Source: Betaproteobacteria bacterium (GTDB taxonomy: Bacteria; Pseudomonadota; Gammaproteobacteria; Burkholderiales; SG8-41). Taken from it: DNA of 64,000 nucleotides. Below the pieces are notes generated by a model that was given only the letters and a program-made list of their open reading frames with translations, ran no database searches and had not been told where the DNA came from. The position numbers and the translations under genes are program-made. The DNA is taken from contig JANYDM010000063.1 of the NCBI GenBank assembly GCA_025363575.1, positions 28,705 through 92,704 of the forward strand, read 5' to 3'. Positions 55,555 to 64,000 of the stretch are shown here, piece by piece; position 1 is the first letter of the stretch, and each line of letters begins with the position of its first letter.

Positions 55555-58500
55555 TTACGCTGCGGCCGCGACGAGCCGGCGGTGCATGCCCTGCACATCG
55601 TAGGCCGTCAGCTCCCGCGATTGTTGCATACCCGTGCACGCAGCGCGCGCGCCGGCGACGGTCGTGTACGACGTGATGCGCGCCTGCAAAGCCGCGCGCC
55701 GGATCGCGTAGGAGTCGCGCACCGCGGCGCGTTTTTCCTCGACGGTGTTCACGATGAGCGCGACATCGTTGTTCTTGATCATGTCGACGACGTGCGGCCG
55801 GCCTTCGGCGACCTTGTTAATCGGCAGCACAGCGAGCCCTTCCGCCGCGAGCGCCGCCGCCGTGCCGCGCGTCGCCACCAGCTGGAATCCCAGCGCCACG
55901 AGATCGCGCGCGATCGCCACCGCCGCGGGCTTGTCGGCGTCACGCACGCTGATGAACACCTTGCCCGACTCGGGCAGGCGGTCGCCTGCCGCCAGCTGCG
56001 ATTTGACGAACGCCTCGCCGAAAGTCGCGCCGACGCCCATCACTTCGCCGGTCGATTTCATCTCCGGGCCCAGTATCGTGTCGGCGCCGGGAAACTTGAT
56101 GAACGGAAATACGGCTTCCTTGACAGAGTAATACGGCGGCACGACTTCGGTGATGCTGTTCTGTGCCGCGAGCGAAGTGCCGGTCATGCAGCGCGCTGCA
56201 ATCTTGGCCAGCGCCAGTCCCGTTGCCTTCGACACGAACGGCACGGTGCGCGAGGCACGCGGATTGACTTCGAGCACGTAGATGACGCCGTTCTGGATCG
56301 CGAATTGCACGTTCATCAGGCCGACGACCTTCAGCGCGTGTGCCATCGCGATCGTCTGCTGGCGCAGTTCGTCCTGCAGCTCAGGCGTCAGACTGAACGG
56401 CGGCAGCGAACACGCAGAATCGCCCGAATGCACGCCGGCCTGCTCAATGTGCTCCATGATGCCGCCGATCAGCACCGCCTTGCCGTCGCAGATCGCGTCG
56501 ACGTCGACCTCGGTCGCATCGTTGAGAAAGCGGTCGAGCAGCACCGGCGAATCATTCGAGACCTTGACGGCTTCGCGCATGTAACGTTCGAGATCGGCCT
56601 GCTCGTGCACGATTTCCATCGCGCGGCCGCCGAGCACGTACGACGGGCGAACTACCAGCGGATAACCGATTTCAGCCGCAAGAGCGAGCGCTTTCTGACT
56701 GCTGCGGGCAGTTCGATTCGGCGGCTGCTTGAGCTTCAGCTTGTGGATCAGCTTCTGGAAACGCTCGCGATCTTCGGCCATATCTATTGAATCGGGCGAA
56801 GTGCCAATGATGGGCACACCATTCGCTTCGAGGTCGCGCGCAAGCTTGAGGGGCGTCTGGCCGCCGTACTGCACGATCACGCCATACGGCTTTTCGACGT
56901 GCACGATTTCGAGCACGTCTTCCAGCGTCAGCGGCTCGAAGTAGAGACGGTCGGAGGTGTCGTAATCGGTCGATACCGTCTCCGGGTTGCAATTCACCAT
57001 GATGGTCTCGAAACCGTCTTCGCGCAGCGCCAGTGCCGCGTGCACGCAGCAGTAGTCGAACTCTATGCCCTGCCCGATGCGGTTCGGTCCGCCGCCCAGC
57101 ACGATGACCTTTTTGCGGTCGGTAGGCTGCGCTTCACATTCTTCCTCGTACGTCGAGTACATGTAGGCGGTGCTGGTAGCGAATTCCGCCGCGCAGGTGT
57201 CGACCCGCTTGTAGACCGGGCGAATACCGAGCGCGTGCCGGTGCGCGCGCATCTCGGTCTCGGTCGCCTTCATGAGATAGGCCAGGCGGCGGTCGGAAAA
57301 CCCTTTGCGCTTCAACCCGCGCAAAGTCACCGCGTCGAGGTCGGCAATCTTCCTGTCGTCGAGCTCCATCTCGAGATCGATGATTTCCTTGATCTGCACC
57401 AGGAACCACGGGTCGATCTTCGTCAACTGGAAAACTTCTTCGAGCGTAAATCCATTCTCGAATGCGTCGCCGACATACCAGATGCGCTCCGGTCCCGGCT
57501 CGCCAAGCTCCTTCTCGAGCGTCTCGCGGTCGGTGGTTTTCTGGTTCATGCCGTCGGCGCCGACCTCGAGCCCGCGCAGCGCCTTCTGAAATGATTCCTG
57601 GAAAGTGCGGCCGATTGCCATCACTTCACCGACCGACTTCATCTGCGTGGTCAGGCGATCGTTGGCGTGCGGGAATTTCTCGAACGCGAATCGCGGCACC
57701 TTGGTCACGACGTAATCGATGGTCGGCTCGAACGACGCGGGCGTAGCACCCCCGGTAATGTCGTTGCGCAGTTCGTCCAGCGTGTAGCCGACCGCCAGCT
57801 TGGCTGCGATCTTGGCGATCGGGAAGCCGGTCGCTTTCGACGCGAGCGCGCTCGAACGCGACACGCGCGGGTTCATTTCGATGATCAGCAAGCGCCCGTC
57901 ATCGGGATTGATCGCGAACTGCACGTTGGACCCGCCGGTGTCCACGCCGATCTCGCGCAGGCACGCGATCGACGCGTTGCGCATGATCTGGTATTCCTTG
58001 TCCGTCAGCGTCTGCGCCGGCGCAACCGTGATCGAGTCGCCGGTGTGCACGCCCATCGGGTCGAGGTTCTCGATCGAGCAGATGATGATGCAGTTGTCCT
58101 TGCTGTCGCGCACCACCTCCATCTCGAACTCTTTCCAGCCGAGCACCGATTCTTCGATCAGCACTTCCCTGGTCGGGCTCGCGTCGAGCCCGCGCTCGAC
58201 GATCGAGACGAACTCTTCCTTGTTGTAGGCGATGCCGCCGCCGGCGCCGCCCAGCGTGAACGACGGGCGAATAACAGTCGGAAACCCGACCATGGCTTGA
58301 ACCTGCAGCGCCTCTTCGAGACTGTGCGCGATGGCTGAGCGCGCGGACGCCAGCCCGATCTTCGCCATCGCCGCCTTGAATTTCTCGCGGTCTTCGGCTT
58401 TGTCGATCGCCTCTTTTTTCGCGCCTATCATTTCGACGTTGTATTTTTCGAGTACGCCGTGCTTGGCGAGATCGAGCGCGCAGTTAAGCGCGGTCTGACC

Positions 58501-58773
58501 GCCCATCGTCGGCAGCAGCGCGTCGGGCCGCTCTATCGCGATGACTTTCTCGACCATCTGCCAGGTGACCGGCTCGATATAAGTGGCGTCCGCCATGTTC
58601 GGGTCGGTCATGATCGTGGCGGGGTTCGAATTCACGAGCACCACGCGATAGCCCTCCTCGCGCAGCGCCTTGCACGCCTGCGCGCCGGAATAGTCGAACT
58701 CGCACGCCTGGCCGATGACGATAGGGCCGGCGCCGATGATCAGGATGCTTTTTATGTCGGTTCTTTTTGGCAT
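55555..58773 (-). CDS. carB: Carbamoyl-phosphate synthase large subunit
   Basis: The 1072-aa enzyme makes carbamoyl phosphate for arginine and pyrimidines from bicarbonate, ATP and ammonia channelled from CarA. Two homologous ATP-grasp halves are visible ([15 protein letters not shown] with [31 protein letters not shown]; then [12 protein letters not shown] with [29 protein letters not shown]). A C-terminal MGS-like allosteric domain follows ([14 protein letters not shown]). The length and order are normal. It lies 42 bp after carA. Confidence 0.97.
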
Positions 58774-58815
58774 AGATTCTTTAACCGAAAAGGACGCGAT
58801 GGACGCGAAGGTTTT

Positions 58816-60033
58816 TCATGAAATGGTTTCCCTGGCGTCATTCGTGTCCCTGGCGGTTCCAGATTTTTGCTTTGCCATCAGAGCAACAAACCGATCGAAC
58901 AAATATCCGACGTCATGCGGCCCCGGGCTCGCTTCCGGATGGCCTTGAAAGCAGAACGCGGGCTGGTCGGTGCGCGCGAAACCCTGCAGCGTTCCGTCGA
59001 ACAGCGATTTGTGCGTGATGCGCACGTTGGCCGGCAGGGTTGCGGGGTCAACCGCGAAGCCGTGGTTCTGGCTCGTGATCATCACGCGTCCCGTGTCAAG
59101 GTCCTGCACCGGATGGTTCGCGCCGTGATGGCCGAATTTCATCTTGAGCGTCTTCGCGCCGCTCGCCAGACCCAGCAATTGATGGCCGAGGCAGATGCCG
59201 AACACCGGAATGCCGGTCGCGACAAGCTCGCGTATCGCGCGTATCGCGTAATCGCAAGGCTCAGGGTCGCCCGGGCCGTTGGCGAGAAAAATTCCGTCGG
59301 GCGTCAACGCGAGCGCATCCTGCGCGGTGCTTTGCGCGGGTATTACGGTGAGCTTGCAGCCGCGCGACGCGAGCATGCGCAGGATATTGAATTTGACTCC
59401 ATAGTCGTAGGCGACGACGTGGAACTTCGGCTCCGCCTGCTGACCGTAGCCGTGACCGAGCTTCCAGTTCGTTTCGGTCCATACATACGACTTCGTGCAA
59501 CTGACCACCTTCGCCAGATCCATGCCGGCCAGACCCGGAAAAGCGCGTGCAGTCTTCAGCGCAGTGTCGACATCGATCTTCCCCGCCATGACACAGCCAT
59601 CCTGCGCACCCTTTTCACGCAGAATGCGCGTAAGCCTGCGCGTATCGATGTCGGCGATCGCGACGACATTCTGCTCGCGCAGATACGCGGACAGATCCTG
59701 CGTGCTGCGCCAGTTGCTCGCCACCAGCGGCAAGTCGCGGATCACGAGTCCGGCGGCGAACACCTTATTCGATTCGACGTCTTCAGGATTGGTGCCGGTG
59801 TTGCCTATGTGCGGATAAGTCAGCGTAACGATCTGACGGCAGTACGACGGATCGGTGAGGATTTCCTGATAGCCCGTCATCGAAGTGTTGAAGACGACTT
59901 CGCCCGCTGACAGGCCGGCCGCGCCGATCGACGTGCCGTGAAAAACCGTGCCATCTTTGAGGACAAGGATGGCTGGTTCACGATGCGGCAAGTCGAACTC
60001 CCGGGAGTAGATATGGAAAGCGGGACAGGTCAT
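58816..60033 (-). CDS. carA: Carbamoyl-phosphate synthase small (glutaminase) subunit
   Basis: This subunit hydrolyses glutamine and passes ammonia to CarB. The N-terminal domain includes [17 protein letters not shown]. The class I glutamine amidotransferase domain has the nucleophilic Cys in [10 protein letters not shown] and the His/Glu in [11 protein letters not shown]. The ATG at 60033 gives 405 aa. A TTG at 59991 ([19 protein letters not shown]) has a GGGAG ribosome binding site and fits the usual family start, so the first 14 residues are doubtful. Confidence 0.95.
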
Positions 60034-60058
60034 AAGACCCGTCCCGCTCGATGGCGCA

Positions 60059-60087
60059 ATTATACGCTAAAGACCAGTCGCCTTCAA
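60059..60087 (-). promoter_or_regulatory. Candidate sigma-70 promoter of carAB
   Basis: The minus strand shows TTGAAG, exactly 17 nt and a perfect TATAAT. RNA would begin near 60052, about 20 nt before the carA ATG. It shows that carAB can be expressed independently of bamE-dapB upstream. Confidence 0.65.
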
Positions 60088-60134
60088 TGCATCAGCGTCG
60101 AATCAACGTGCTGATTCGGCATTAAAAACGCGCG

Positions 60135-60941
60135 TCAACGCAAGCCGAGCACGTCCTGCATGTCGAACAGCCCGAACTTCCTGTCGGCGAGAAAACGCGC
60201 AGCTCTCAATGCCCCTTCGGCGTACGTGGCGCGACTGCCGGAGCGCACGATTATTTCGACGCGTTCGCCGGGACCGGCGAACATCACGGTGTGCTCGCCG
60301 ACGATGTCGCCTCCGCGCACCGCTGAAAACCCTATCGTCGAGCTTTTGCGCTCGCCGGTAACGCCTTCGCGGCCAAACACCGCGGCCTCGCCGAGGTTTC
60401 TGCCGAGCGCTTTGGCGATGATGGCGCCAATGTGAAGTGCAGTGCCCGACGGCGCGTCGACTTTGTGCCGATGGTGCGCCTCGATGATTTCCACGTCGTA
60501 ACCGTCCTGCAGCACGCGCGCAGCCATGTCCGCCAGCTTGAACACGAGATTGGTGCCGACGCTCATGTTCGGCGCCATCACGATCGCAATATCGCGCCCG
60601 GCGTCCGCTATCGATTTTTTCTGCGCGTCGTCAAAACCGGTCGTGCCGATCACCATTTTGACGCCGAGCTTGCGGCAGGCGGCGAGATGCGCCAGTGTGC
60701 CTTCCGGGCGTGTGAAATCGATCAATGCGTCGCAGCCACCCAGACTTTTCTCGACATCTGCGCTGACTATCACCCGCGCGGGCAGGCTGACGAGTTCACC
60801 CGCGTTTTTGCCGACGCTCGCGCCGCCCGCGACTTCGAGCGCGGCGCCGAGTTCCAGATCGGCGCTGTTCAGTACGCCTTCGAGTAGCGCGCGTCCCATG
60901 CGTCCCGCGCTGCCCGCTACCGCAATTTTCATTTTCACCAT
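60135..60941 (-). CDS. dapB: 4-hydroxy-tetrahydrodipicolinate reductase
   Basis: This NAD(P)H-dependent enzyme of lysine and diaminopimelate synthesis has 268 aa. It has the nucleotide-binding MKIAVAGSAGRMGRAL, the DFTRPEG segment and the catalytic/substrate motif EAHHRHKVDAPSGTAL. The ATG at 60941 follows GGGAG by 6 nt; an ATG three codons later is possible. It lies 60 bp after bamE on the same strand. Confidence 0.96.
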   Translation of the reverse strand: MVKMKIAVAGSAGRMGRALLEGVLNSADLELGAALEVAGGASVGKNAGELVSLPARVIVSADVEKSLGGCDALIDFTRPEGTLAHLAACRKLGVKMVIGTTGFDDAQKKSIADAGRDIAIVMAPNMSVGTNLVFKLADMAARVLQDGYDVEIIEAHHRHKVDAPSGTALHIGAIIAKALGRNLGEAAVFGREGVTGERKSSTIGFSAVRGGDIVGEHTVMFAGPGERVEIIVRSGSRATYAEGALRAARFLADRKFGLFDMQDVLGLR

Positions 60942-61830: not shown

Positions 61831-62262
61831 GTGAGTTCCCCGACCGATCTCAAGACCATGGGTCTCAAGGCAACGCTGCCGCGTTTGCGCATCCTCGAAT
61901 TGTTCGAGAAAAGCGACGTGCGGCACCTGACGGCCGAGGAAGTTTACAAAATCCTGCTCAAGGAAGGCACCGACACGGGGCTGGCGACCGTCTACCGCGT
62001 ATTGACGCAATTCGAGCAGGCCGGCCTGCTCGTGCGCCACCACTTCGAGAGCGGCAAGGCGGTGTTCGAACTGAACCGCGGCGGTCACCATGACCATCTG
62101 GTGTGCATGCAGTGCGGCCGCGTCGAGGAATTCTACGACGAGGCGATCGAAAAGCGGCAGATGGCCGTTGCAAAGGAACGCGGCTTCGCGATTCACGAGC
62201 ACTCGCTCCACCTGTACGTCGATTGCACCAAGCCGAACTGCCCGAACAAGAGCAAAAGCTGA
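61831..62262 (+). CDS. fur: Ferric uptake regulator Fur
   Basis: This 143-aa iron-responsive repressor has a winged helix (about 15-80, containing [27 protein letters not shown]) and a metal-binding/dimerisation domain with the [16 protein letters not shown] segment and the C-terminal DCTKPNC cysteine pair. The start is a GTG in the 106-bp divergent gap with bamE. Fur often represses its own gene; no clear Fur box is seen in this gap. It ends directly against the convergent gene at 62263. Confidence 0.96.
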
Positions 62263-63378
62263 TCAGCTTTTCCGGAAGTCCTCGACCGACTTTGCCAGCT
62301 GGCCGTCCTTGCGCTTGAGTGCGCGCGTGACCGCCTTCGTTGCGCCGAAGGTGGGAATATATGCGGAGTGCTTGCCGGCGCCGCCGATCACCGCAATGAT
62401 AATGTCATCGGCGTTCTGCACTGCGTAGACCGGCGCATCGAGGCCGGCGTTGGCATACCTGTCTTTGAACGTGACGCGGAAGCGGCGCTCGATGTTCTCT
62501 TTCGAGAATTTGCCAAGCGGCAGTTGCGCGCGCTCCTGCAGGAAGCGCTTGGCGTCCGCCTTGCTGTAGCCGTCGTTGGCGACCGCCTTGGCGTGCTCCG
62601 GCCCCATCACGATTACAGGCTGCGCCGCATAGTAAATGTCGTTCGAGCCGGTCGTTGCCATCGTGCCGGCAATCGTCGTGAGTATGCCCTCGCCCGACAG
62701 GCTTTCGTGGTCATTGATATTGTGCGGGCATTCGGCGCCGATAACGGTCACTGCGCTCGCTTCTTTTGCCAGCCCCCGCTCGACATGCAGCGGCGCCCAT
62801 GGGCTTTGCGCTTCGTTTTCTGCGACGAGATAGCTGAACTTCGACGGCGCACCGAACGTCGACATGTCGCCCAGCGTCGGGATCGCGCCGCCGATGTTGA
62901 CGAGCGCGAGGCGGATCGCGCGGCCTACGGTCGCATTGCTGCGCGTGCCTGGCCCGAACGCATTGTGGCCGCCGTTAATGCCGAGCTCGGTTGCGACCGG
63001 GCCATTGACGATGACCAATGGAGCGCAGAGATGGGTGGTCGCCTGCACGCCATAGAGATTGAACGGCTCTTCGCACATGGCTTCTATCGCCAGCATGAAG
63101 AGCGGGAAGTAGTTCGGCGCGCAGCCGGCCATGACGGCGTTGGCCGCGAGCCGCAGCGGCGTCGCTTCGCCGTAACGGGGCGCCATCTTCGCTATCGGCA
63201 CATCCCACGGCCGGTCGCAATACTCGAGCATCTTTTCAACGCGCCCGGCCGTCGGCGGAATGATCGGCAGGCCATCGCCCCAGCCGCGCTCCATGTAAAG
63301 CCGGTTGATCGCGTCGAAGTCGTCGTCCGCATCGATGCTCGCGTCCTGCGCCTTCAGAAGTTCGGCGAGATCGCTCAT
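62263..63378 (-). CDS. Conserved protein of unknown function coupled to the UGSC selenoprotein
   Basis: This 371-aa soluble protein has no signal peptide and no motif I can assign to an enzyme class. Notable parts are GWGDGLPIIPPTAGRVEKML (31-50), a MAGCAPNYFPLFML segment, CEEPFNLYGVQATTHLCAP and ECPHNINDHESLSGEG, so several conserved-looking Cys and His residues, and a late GGAGKHSAYIPTFG. Its ATG overlaps the selenoprotein stop (ATGA at 63378-63375), so the two proteins are very likely made in fixed ratio and act together, perhaps as a two-part redox enzyme (inference). Confidence 0.75.
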   Translation of the reverse strand: MSDLAELLKAQDASIDADDDFDAINRLYMERGWGDGLPIIPPTAGRVEKMLEYCDRPWDVPIAKMAPRYGEATPLRLAANAVMAGCAPNYFPLFMLAIEAMCEEPFNLYGVQATTHLCAPLVIVNGPVATELGINGGHNAFGPGTRSNATVGRAIRLALVNIGGAIPTLGDMSTFGAPSKFSYLVAENEAQSPWAPLHVERGLAKEASAVTVIGAECPHNINDHESLSGEGILTTIAGTMATTGSNDIYYAAQPVIVMGPEHAKAVANDGYSKADAKRFLQERAQLPLGKFSKENIERRFRVTFKDRYANAGLDAPVYAVQNADDIIIAVIGGAGKHSAYIPTFGATKAVTRALKRKDGQLAKSVEDFRKS

Positions 63379-63914
63379 TGCATGTGCTCCTTGATCAGTT
63401 TGACCAGCTGCGGCAATGCGACTAGTGAGCGGCCTTCCACCTGCTCCAGCGACAGACCCCCAAGCGGGTGCGGAATCTTGACGAGCGGCAGATCGGGCGT
63501 GCCGAACACCTTCGACTGCGTGCTGCCCAGCTTGATGAACGGATCGGAAACGATAACGGCGGTGACGAGGCCGCGCTTACGCAGTTCTGACATGTCGTGG
63601 ACACTCCACGACGTGCAGGACCCTCAATCACCCATCGCGGAGACGACGAAATCTGTCTCCGCGGCGAGCTTGTCGAGTATGTCGTTGGGCGCGGGCAAGC
63701 TCACGCTGCCTTTGCGCAATGTCACGACGGACGCGACGGGCACTGCCGCCTTGACGCCGTCGATGATGAATTTAAGCAGGTGGTCTGCGTTGCCCTTGCT
63801 GTTGTCGAGGATACCCAGCCGCAGGCCCCCTTGCGCGAACTTGCGTTGCGCCCTGGCCGCCGCGGTCGCGGGCACCGGCGCTTCCGGCACCACCAGTTTT
63901 ACTTTATTGCCCAT
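63375..63914 (-). CDS. UGSC-family selenoprotein (Sec97 encoded by in-frame TGA)
   Basis: The reading frame runs from ATG 63914 (GAGGAG 6 nt upstream) to TGA 63377-63375, 179 residues, with one internal TGA at 63626-63624. Across that codon the protein reads SAMGD-U-GSCTSWSVHD-MSELRKRG, i.e. Sec97-Gly-Ser-Cys100, the defining UGSC motif of a known selenoprotein family. The frame and composition continue unbroken on both sides (LVTAVIVSDPFIKLGSTQSK). A hairpin with bacterial SECIS features begins 11 nt after the TGA. Without selenocysteine reading it would look like two ORFs, one of 96 aa and one of 72 aa. The molecular function is unknown; Sec/Cys suggests redox chemistry. No sel genes are in the window. 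Confidence 0.85.
63594..63626 (-). promoter_or_regulatory. Bacterial SECIS element
   Basis: On the mRNA strand UGA (63626-63624) is followed by 11 nt, then GUCGUGGA (63612-63605), loop GUG (63604-63602) and UCCACGAC (63601-63594). This is a perfect 8-bp stem. A G is in the first loop position and the loop lies 19 nt from the UGA. Known bacterial SECIS elements have a short apical stem-loop with a G in the first two loop bases about 16-37 nt from the UGA, so the fit is close. Confidence 0.8.
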
Positions 63915-63950: not shown

Positions 63951-64000
63951 TCAGGTTTTAATGCCCAGCATTTCCGCCGCGTGCTTGCGCGTCGTTTCCG
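63951..64000 (-). CDS. Partial gene, C-terminal end only
   Basis: An open frame runs in from the window edge and ends ETTRKHAAEMLGIKT-stop. Composition and frame look coding, and it lies 36 bp upstream of the selenoprotein start on the same strand, so it may belong to the same operon. Fifteen residues are too few to name the family. Confidence 0.5.
   Translation of the reverse strand, partial: ETTRKHAAEMLGIKT

What the first reader, a model, noticed from the sequence alone, without database searches (positions are those of the whole stretch)
63375..63914. Selenoprotein of the UGSC family hidden as two split ORFs
Seen: one continuous minus-strand frame of 180 codons is interrupted only by a TGA, which falls exactly at the U of a U-G-S-C motif (Sec97, Cys100). 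A perfect 8-bp hairpin with a G-first triloop starts 11 nt behind the TGA. Known: UGSC proteins are a selenoprotein family of unknown function, and bacterial SECIS elements sit just after the UGA with a G at the top of the loop. Inference: this host decodes UGA as selenocysteine. Standard annotation would produce two truncated hypothetical proteins.
Basis: partly seen in the sequence, partly recalled or inferred. Interest (0 to 1): 0.87.

Follow-up and report, generated by a model that had tools for sequence, protein, structure and literature searches.

The report
Selenoprotein gene from an amplified family
The gene very probably reads one "stop" codon as selenocysteine, and it belongs to a known but uncharacterised selenoprotein family that related bacteria carry in up to dozens of copies, mostly tied to the same unnamed partner protein.

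Summary
Confirmed. Minus strand 63914-63375 is one 179-codon frame broken only by TGA (63626-63624) at the U of U-G-S-C; an 8-bp hairpin with a GTG loop starts 11 nt behind it. The protein matches Pfam UGSC (E 2e-42). All 15 relatives found by one genome scan keep the TGA and a hairpin in the same place. Their 14 genomes hold selA and selD (14 of 14), selB and tRNA-Sec (13 each over cut-off). The window's own genome is not held.

A 371-aa gene (63378-62263) overlaps the UGSC stop; this partner is fused to or beside 87 of 90 distinct Sec copies inspected. And the family is amplified: 74 of 74 genomes of one taxonomic family carry it, and one 5.7-Mb genome has 58 matches, with 51 U-G-x-C genes confirmed, at most 75% identical. 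Cited totals for the largest whole bacterial selenoproteomes are 57 and 63 (PMC13188914, passages).

The predicted fold is flavodoxin-like, with weak, disputable similarity to GrdB/PrdB. A two-part substrate-specific reductase is my best mechanism (about 40%). The window gene is a new member of a known family.

The parts
63375..63914 (-). UGSC-family selenoprotein gene, 179 aa, read through TGA at codon 97
   Evidence: 15 of 15 relatives keep TGA here
63624..63626 (-). in-frame TGA, selenocysteine codon 97 (U-G-S-C)
63594..63612 (-). bacterial SECIS-like hairpin: 8-bp stem, GTG triloop, 11 nt after the TGA
   Evidence: z -2.51; same register, at least 7 of 8 pairs, in 82 of 112 distinct copies; synonymous constraint
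63375..63378 (-). ATGA overlap: start of the partner gene and stop of the UGSC gene (translational coupling, inferred)
   Evidence: the same -1 spacing is the commonest among 34 adjacent pairs
62263..63378 (-). partner protein, 371 aa, no Pfam or NCBIfam family at or above cut-off; fused to UGSC in many paralogues
   Evidence: paired with 87 of 90 distinct Sec copies
63951..64000 (-). 3' end of an upstream gene that reads like recN (ends TTRKHAAEMLGIKT), cut by the window edge; flank only
   Evidence: read by eye; a similar gene precedes UGSC in L002; the name recN is recalled, not from a family search
61831..62262 (+). fur, convergent neighbour; flank only

Best explanation
The locus encodes a UGSC-family selenoprotein in which TGA 63626-63624 is read as selenocysteine through the hairpin just behind it (supported by sequence and comparison, not biochemically). 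It is made together with the overlapping 371-aa gene, and the two proteins form one enzyme (inferred from near-universal pairing and frequent natural fusion). Most likely mechanism, inferred, about 40%: the selenol of Sec97, at the start of a helix in a flavodoxin-like domain, attacks or reduces a small substrate held at the interface with the partner. Cys100 resolves the selenyl-sulfide, and an unknown thiol donor re-reduces it. This would resemble the substrate-specific protein B (GrdB/GrdE) complexes of glycine reductase. Dozens of paralogues, often beside Bug/TctC receptors in relatives, would then serve different small organic acids. The confidence below is for the first two sentences.
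For: Profile match to PF24696. TGA and a hairpin in the same place in 15 of 15 relatives. 112 distinct copies: 82 with the triloop hairpin (at least 7 of 8 pairs), 23 with a hexaloop hairpin in the same place (at least 5 of 6 pairs), 7 other; stem pair 18:24 is G-C in 60 and C-G in 22 of the 82; the loop starts with G in 81 of 82. Sec machinery: selA 15 of 15, selD 15 of 15 (14 relatives plus G056; each best selD match itself with 1 TGA), selB over cut-off in 13 of 14, tRNA-Sec over cut-off in 13 of 14. Partner: 39 fused, 34 adjacent downstream, 14 upstream of 90 distinct copies. Models: UGSC domain pLDDT 93.1; natural fusion pLDDT 90.8, pTM 0.91. Remote GrdB/PrdB signal: GrdB model hit by 24 of 51 members, best E 1.8e-5; PrdB by 12 of 34 fused members, best 7e-4; profile-profile P 0.0066 with the Sec/Cys motif aligned on UxxC. 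Bug receptors 3.02 per 10 kb near UGSC genes against 1.48 in control stretches of the same genome.
Against: No selenium incorporation was measured. The window's genome is not held, so its own selABCD is unverified. NF041046 scores 1.6 bits below its cut-off. Sequence searches of solved structures give no credible relative, and the structure matches are generic alpha/beta folds. The GrdB/PrdB link is weak: hhalign probability 5.8%; the unrelated partner profile scores 21.3 (P 0.04) against the same PrdB-like set, not far below UGSC's 24.7; and Pfam scans of the same members list no glycine or proline reductase family at E <= 0.1. In the window there is only one Bug hit in 64 kb, so the receptor association comes from relatives' paralogues. 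L014 and L071 carry UGSC genes with no partner in the fetched stretch. In the hairpin, pair 12:30 is non-standard in 10 and pair 19:23 in 7 of the 82.
Confidence: 0.93

Rival explanations
1. The TGA is a mutation or sequencing error in a gene that is otherwise a Cys protein or a pseudogene.
For: One Cys copy (L082) turned up among the copies read in detail, 4 of 98 matches in G056 and G018 carry an extra stop besides the TGA, and 62 of 120 listed database relatives span the Sec position, presumably as Cys forms.
Against: 15 of 15 relatives have TGA at this codon with the rest of the frame open; 85 of 87 matches in four further genomes contain one TGA; synonymous constraint sits on the hairpin.
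Confidence: 0.02
2. UGA is reassigned genome-wide (for example to Trp or Cys) rather than read as Sec.
For: The frame is open if TGA is read as any residue.
Against: The UGSC gene itself ends in TGA at the start of its partner gene, and Trp in the same gene is coded TGG; relatives have Sec machinery and a conserved hairpin.
Confidence: 0.01
3. Both halves are made as separate proteins (termination at TGA plus re-initiation at the ATG at 63593).
For: An ATG directly behind the hairpin starts the 72-aa downstream ORF.
Against: The predicted fold runs continuously across the TGA with residue 97 just before a helix; in the natural fusions the TGA lies inside one long frame that joins UGSC to the partner.
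Confidence: 0.03
4. The pair is a general thiol/selenol oxidoreductase (thioredoxin-like redox partner) rather than a substrate-specific reductase.
For: UxxC motif; the 2008 marine survey suggested a likely thioredoxin-like fold (PMC2398784, passages).
Against: The model has five alternating beta-alpha units, not thioredoxin topology; a general reductase does not obviously need dozens of diverged paralogues in one genome.
Confidence: 0.25
5. The pairs detoxify electrophiles or organohalides by selenol attack, as proposed for the GrdB-like FarB protein on monofluoroacetate.
For: GrdB-like proteins have been assigned to C-F cleavage (PMC10838667, passages); weak GrdB similarity.
Against: The neighbours of the window gene that were identified (fur, BamE) suggest nothing of the kind; the commonest neighbours in relatives are Bug receptors and assorted catabolic enzymes. 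No dedicated search for dehalogenation genes was made.
Confidence: 0.15

Closest known systems
UGSC-containing selenoprotein family (PF24696; NF041046), reported from marine metagenomes in 2008
   Same: Same profile, same Sec-x-x-Cys motif, TGA plus hairpin; the 2008 paper (passages) also reports UGSC fused to a conserved domain Unknown_1, fused domains having as a rule a conserved Cys. Unknown_1 is probably the partner found here (inference; its Figure S1 was not seen).
   Different: Here the partner accompanies 87 of 90 Sec copies, the fold is predicted flavodoxin-like instead of thioredoxin-like, and the family is amplified to dozens of copies in some genomes.
Glycine reductase protein B / D-proline reductase selenoproteins (GrdB, PrdB)
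   Same: UxxC selenocysteine motif, two-part enzyme, several substrate-specific versions in one Synergistota strain (PMC10838667, passages).
   Different: Far below the GrdB model cut-off; only distant and disputable profile similarity. GrdA/GrdC counterparts were not looked for.
Olavius algarvensis Delta 1 symbiont and a Methylomirabilota MAG (largest bacterial selenoproteomes cited, 57 and 63 genes; PMC13188914, passages)
   Same: Very high number of selenoprotein genes in one genome.
   Different: Here one family alone reaches at least 51 genes in one MAG; the make-up of those two selenoproteomes was not seen.

Membership tests
UGSC (PF24696) | match to the Pfam profile above its cut-off | tested here: met
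   145.5 bits against cut-off 25, residues 8-174
UGSC (NF041046) | match to the NCBIfam equivalog model above its cut-off | tested here: inconclusive
   123.4 bits against 125, with U scored as C
UGSC | Sec (or Cys)-Gly-Ser-Cys motif | tested here: met
   GDUGSCT at codons 95-101; relatives have U-G-[SAGT]-C, with U-G-S-S in L073, U-G-T-S in L075 and C-G-T-S in L082 as exceptions
bacterial selenoprotein | in-frame TGA followed by a SECIS-type hairpin with a conserved loop G | tested here: met
   no dedicated bacterial SECIS program was available, and Rfam gives no SECIS match here
bacterial selenoprotein | selA, selB, selC, selD in the same genome | tested here: inconclusive
   own genome not held; in relatives selA and selD 15 of 15, selB and tRNA-Sec over cut-off in 13 of 14 each
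bacterial selenoprotein | selenium physically present in the protein | not testable with these tools
   needs 75Se labelling or mass spectrometry
thioredoxin-fold selenoproteins | thioredoxin topology | tested here: not met
   predicted order E-H-E-H-E-H-E-H-E-H at pLDDT 93.1; a prediction, not a solved structure, and not a defining feature of UGSC
GrdB/PrdB reductase family | match above the family models' cut-offs | tested here: not met
   window protein 13.4 bits against 602.2 for TIGR01917
GrdB/PrdB reductase family | distant common ancestry of the Sec-bearing segment | tested here: inconclusive
   24 of 51 members hit GrdB, best 1.8e-5; hhalign P 0.0066, score 24.7 against at most 18.9 in 20 column shuffles, but probability only 5.8% and an unrelated profile (the partner) reaches 21.3; no such hit in Pfam

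The most novel reading that the evidence does not exclude
The window gene is one copy of a genome-scale, substrate-diversified selenoenzyme superfamily. [quoted passage not shown] One betaproteobacterial lineage has duplicated it into dozens of Sec-dependent versions, many beside Bug/TctC receptors for small acids, possibly one of the largest single-family selenoprotein expansions in any bacterium. The expansion itself is close to shown (about 0.85); the functional reading is the uncertain part.
Probability: 0.4. Interest if true: 0.8.

Novelty: new member of a known kind. Interest (0 to 1): 0.6.

Why it matters
Ordinary gene calling splits this gene, and the same happens to its relatives: 119 of 120 listed database relatives of the fused form begin only behind the Sec residue. 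The family has been in print since 2008 and a 2026 review still counts it among largely uncharacterised ones (passages). Here it acquires a near-obligatory partner, a predicted fold and a natural two-domain fusion that can be expressed as one chain, so its function becomes directly testable. A single genome with at least 51 selenoprotein genes of one family would also stand beside the richest selenoproteomes cited, which a review places mainly in anaerobes (PMC13188914, passages). Whether the lineage here is aerobic was not tested.

Tried and rejected
Rejected: sequencing error or pseudogene (15 of 15 relatives keep the TGA); UGA reassignment (TGA terminates the same gene); thioredoxin topology.

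Led nowhere: solved structures by sequence gave no credible match for the UGSC protein, the partner or the two profiles. The structure lists for the UGSC model (50 shown of each kind) hold flavodiiron/flavodoxin-like, receiver, GTPase-type and other alpha/beta domains and show no thioredoxin, GrdB or PrdB entry; absence from such a list excludes nothing. The fold search with the fused model filled up with matches to the UGSC half, so the partner's fold stays untested on its own. Rfam found three tRNAs at gathering score and no SECIS or tRNA-Sec in the window. PrdB-like proteins were sought in 369 genomes of the class: 8 had a match at E <= 1e-15 and none reached the family cut-off; the ten listed matches formed the comparison set A3. 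Bug receptors looked specific at first (189 of 534 neighbour ORFs within 5 kb, by a home-made ORF caller), but G056 has 995 first-look TctC candidates, of which 150 were scored. The enrichment is about twofold: 160 Bugs in 530 kb of UGSC stretches against 59 in 398 kb of control stretches, 20 contig starts without a UGSC gene; in 20 stretches of three other genomes it is 1.97 per 10 kb with no control. The Bug profile was built from neighbours of UGSC genes, which could favour that side. 26 of 30 UGSC copies with full flanks have a Bug within 2.5 kb against 535 of 1000 random control windows; 21 of the 51 G056 copies were dropped for short flanks.

Literature: the searches showed no paper reporting this amplification. 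The library holds only open-licence PMC papers, and the primary paper behind the 63-gene Methylomirabilota genome was not found. I saw passages only of PMC2398784, PMC13188914, PMC9312934, PMC5029168, PMC9402790, PMC5330540, PMC7539508, PMC10838667 and PMC1088965, and only the listing of PMC7435645.

Limits of counts: one search scored at most 40 candidates per genome and at most 11, so their copy numbers are lower bounds. Searches list only part of their matches. One search contains duplicates of the same gene from overlapping loci; searches count distinct ones. Copies without U (such as L082) were dropped before the hairpin and partner counts. 'Adjacent downstream' means -60 to +300 nt; 'upstream' means that the partner profile starts 1.6-1.9 kb before the UGSC end on the same strand.

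Full report
1. The observation. Window minus strand 63914-63375 is one frame of 179 sense codons and a stop, interrupted only by TGA at codon 97 (63626-63624), inside GDUGSCT with Cys100. Eleven bases behind the TGA an 8-bp perfect stem closes a GTG loop (63612-63594). The 51-nt stretch folds at -20.8 kcal/mol, z -2.51; 4 of 200 dinucleotide shuffles do as well. Under the standard code the gene appears as 96-aa and 72-aa ORFs.

2. Family. Read with Cys for Sec, the protein matches Pfam UGSC at 145.5 bits, E 2.3e-42. NCBIfam NF041046 gives 123.4 bits, just under its cut-off of 125. UGSC-containing selenoproteins were reported in a 2008 marine metagenome survey, which lists 255 selenoprotein and 21 Cys forms and calls them the most frequently used in non-marine samples (PMC2398784, passages). 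A 2026 review lists them among families whose functions remain largely uncharacterised (PMC13188914, passages).

3. Conservation of the TGA and hairpin. A pattern scan of one genome per species returned 15 relatives in 14 genomes; 15 of 15 have TGA at this codon and a hairpin in the same place. With further paralogues I examined 112 distinct copies that carry U-G-x-C or U-G-x-S: 82 have the triloop hairpin in this register with at least 7 of 8 pairs, 23 a hexaloop hairpin in the same place with at least 5 of 6 pairs, 7 neither. In the 82, stem pair 18:24 is G-C in 60 and C-G in 22, pair 12:30 is G-C in 63 and A-T in 8, and the loop begins with G in 81. Some pairs do break: 12:30 is non-standard in 10 of the 82 and 19:23 in 7. 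Against synonymous recoding the hairpin region has mean z -1.44 over 112 copies (27% below -2); a control stretch about 90 nt further on has -0.34 over 110 copies (5% below -2). In a 15-sequence subfamily, 3 of 6 degenerate invariant-residue codons in the hairpin use a single codon, against 0 of 59 elsewhere. The constraint therefore acts on the nucleic acid, not only on the protein.

4. Decoding machinery. No whole genome is held for the window. In the 14 genomes of its relatives, SelB is over cut-off in 13 (in G012 it is present in pieces on two contigs) and tRNA-Sec in 13. The exception for tRNA-Sec, G002, has selA and selB on a short contig that ends about 150 bases after selB. selA and selD are over cut-off in 15 of 15 (the 14 plus G056), and the best selD match itself contains one TGA in 15 of 15. 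The nearest locus, L001, is 91% identical in protein.

5. The partner. The UGSC stop codon TGA overlaps the ATG of a 371-aa gene (63378-62263). That protein has no Pfam or NCBIfam family at or above cut-off and 6,629 relatives at E <= 1e-3 among the 7,998 candidates scored; the 120 listed carry no Pfam domain. In 90 distinct Sec copies on the longer loci, 39 are fused to it, 34 have it adjacent downstream, 14 upstream, 1 is cut by the locus end and 2 (L014, L071) have none in the fetched stretch: 87 of 90 paired. The 2008 paper mentions a UGSC fusion to a conserved domain Unknown_1 (passages). The partner has a nearly invariant Cys (C262 in A1) and is probably that domain (inference).

6. Amplification. 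PF24696 matches 4-36 times per genome in the 14 relatives (296 matches in all). G056 (5.7 Mb) has 58 matches, 54 containing a TGA, 51 of these with exactly one stop; G018 has 40 matches, 38 containing a TGA. I fetched 40 stretches of G056 and found 51 copies with U-G-x-C, 33 of them fused; the closest pair is 75% identical and the median nearest-neighbour identity 63%, so they are not near-identical strain duplicates. G056 has one SelB and one SelA match. The pattern also holds in better assemblies: G046 (20 matches, some on a contig longer than 1.15 Mb), G079 (19), G128 (24), G211 (24), 85 of these 87 with a TGA. Wider out, 34 of 300 genomes of the order have a match at E <= 1e-10, at least 9 of them members of the same family. 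A 2016 survey of more than 5,200 organisms has a table row 'UGSC-containing protein 26, 33', which I take as 26 organisms and 33 genes (PMC5029168, passages). The largest whole bacterial selenoproteomes cited are 57 and 63 genes (PMC13188914, passages). None of the searches I made shows this amplification in print.

7. Misannotation. Of the 120 listed database relatives of the fused form, 119 align only behind the Sec residue and one (P0356, 533 aa) spans it. Of the 120 listed relatives of the window protein, 58 end before Sec97 and 62 span it, presumably as Cys forms.

8. Structure and chemistry. The window protein is predicted with pLDDT 93.1 as five beta-alpha units, with residue 97 just before helix 98-113. 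The structural matches are generic flavodoxin-like, receiver-like, GTPase-type and similar alpha/beta domains; the topology disagrees with the thioredoxin-like fold suggested in 2008. A natural fusion (L091:8257-9849) is predicted with pLDDT 90.8 and pTM 0.91, which suggests a defined arrangement of the two halves. The partner half has no clear structural match, but it was not tested alone. GrdB and PrdB are the commonest non-self NCBIfam matches: GrdB in 24 of 51 UGSC members (best 1.8e-5), PrdB in 12 of 34 fused members (best 7e-4). Pfam scans of the same members list no glycine or proline reductase family at E <= 0.1. Profile comparison with PrdB-like proteins aligns the Sec/Cys motif on UxxC with P 0.0066 and score 24.7; 20 column-shuffled controls reach at most 18.9, but the unrelated partner profile reaches 21.3 and the probability is only 5.8%. 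I treat this as a lead.

9. Mechanism. Shown by sequence: the read-through frame, the constrained hairpin, the pairing and the amplification. Inferred: Sec97 is the nucleophile or reductant, Cys100 the resolving thiol, and the partner helps to hold the substrate. The analogy is glycine reductase protein B, of which one Synergistota strain has eight grdB genes predicted to contain Sec, with a GrdB-like protein assigned to C-F cleavage (PMC10838667, passages). In G056 Bug/TctC receptors occur at 3.02 per 10 kb around UGSC genes against 1.48 in 20 control stretches, consistent with a role on small organic acids. The window's own copy sits instead between the end of a recN-like gene and fur, with one Bug hit in 64 kb, so the receptor argument does not apply to it directly.

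10. Verdict. The gene is a new member of a known selenoprotein family; the interesting part is the partner and the scale of the amplification around it.

Noticed in passing
   Followed up: partly
L031, L032 (contigs of G003, G001) and L066 (contig of G012): A UGSC gene lies beside the Sec machinery: about 1 kb from the tRNA-Sec gene in G001 and G003 (gene cut by the fetched stretch), and a fused one next to selA in G012.
   Followed up: partly
L073 and L075 (G012): Two copies with altered motifs, U-G-S-S and U-G-T-S, and without the usual hairpin register; they may be decaying or specialised.
   Followed up: no
L145, L146, L147, L150, L153, L154: PrdB-like proteins with in-frame TGA (U-P-x-C) in genomes of the class, below the PrdB family cut-off; two of them in G009 together with its UGSC set.
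   Followed up: partly
G001-G014 and G056: The best selD match contains one in-frame TGA in 15 of 15 genomes, so selenophosphate synthetase is itself probably a selenoprotein.
   Followed up: no
window 55555-60941, minus strand: ORFs that read like carB, carA and dapB; ordinary chromosomal neighbourhood. Names recalled from the sequences, no family search made.
   Followed up: no
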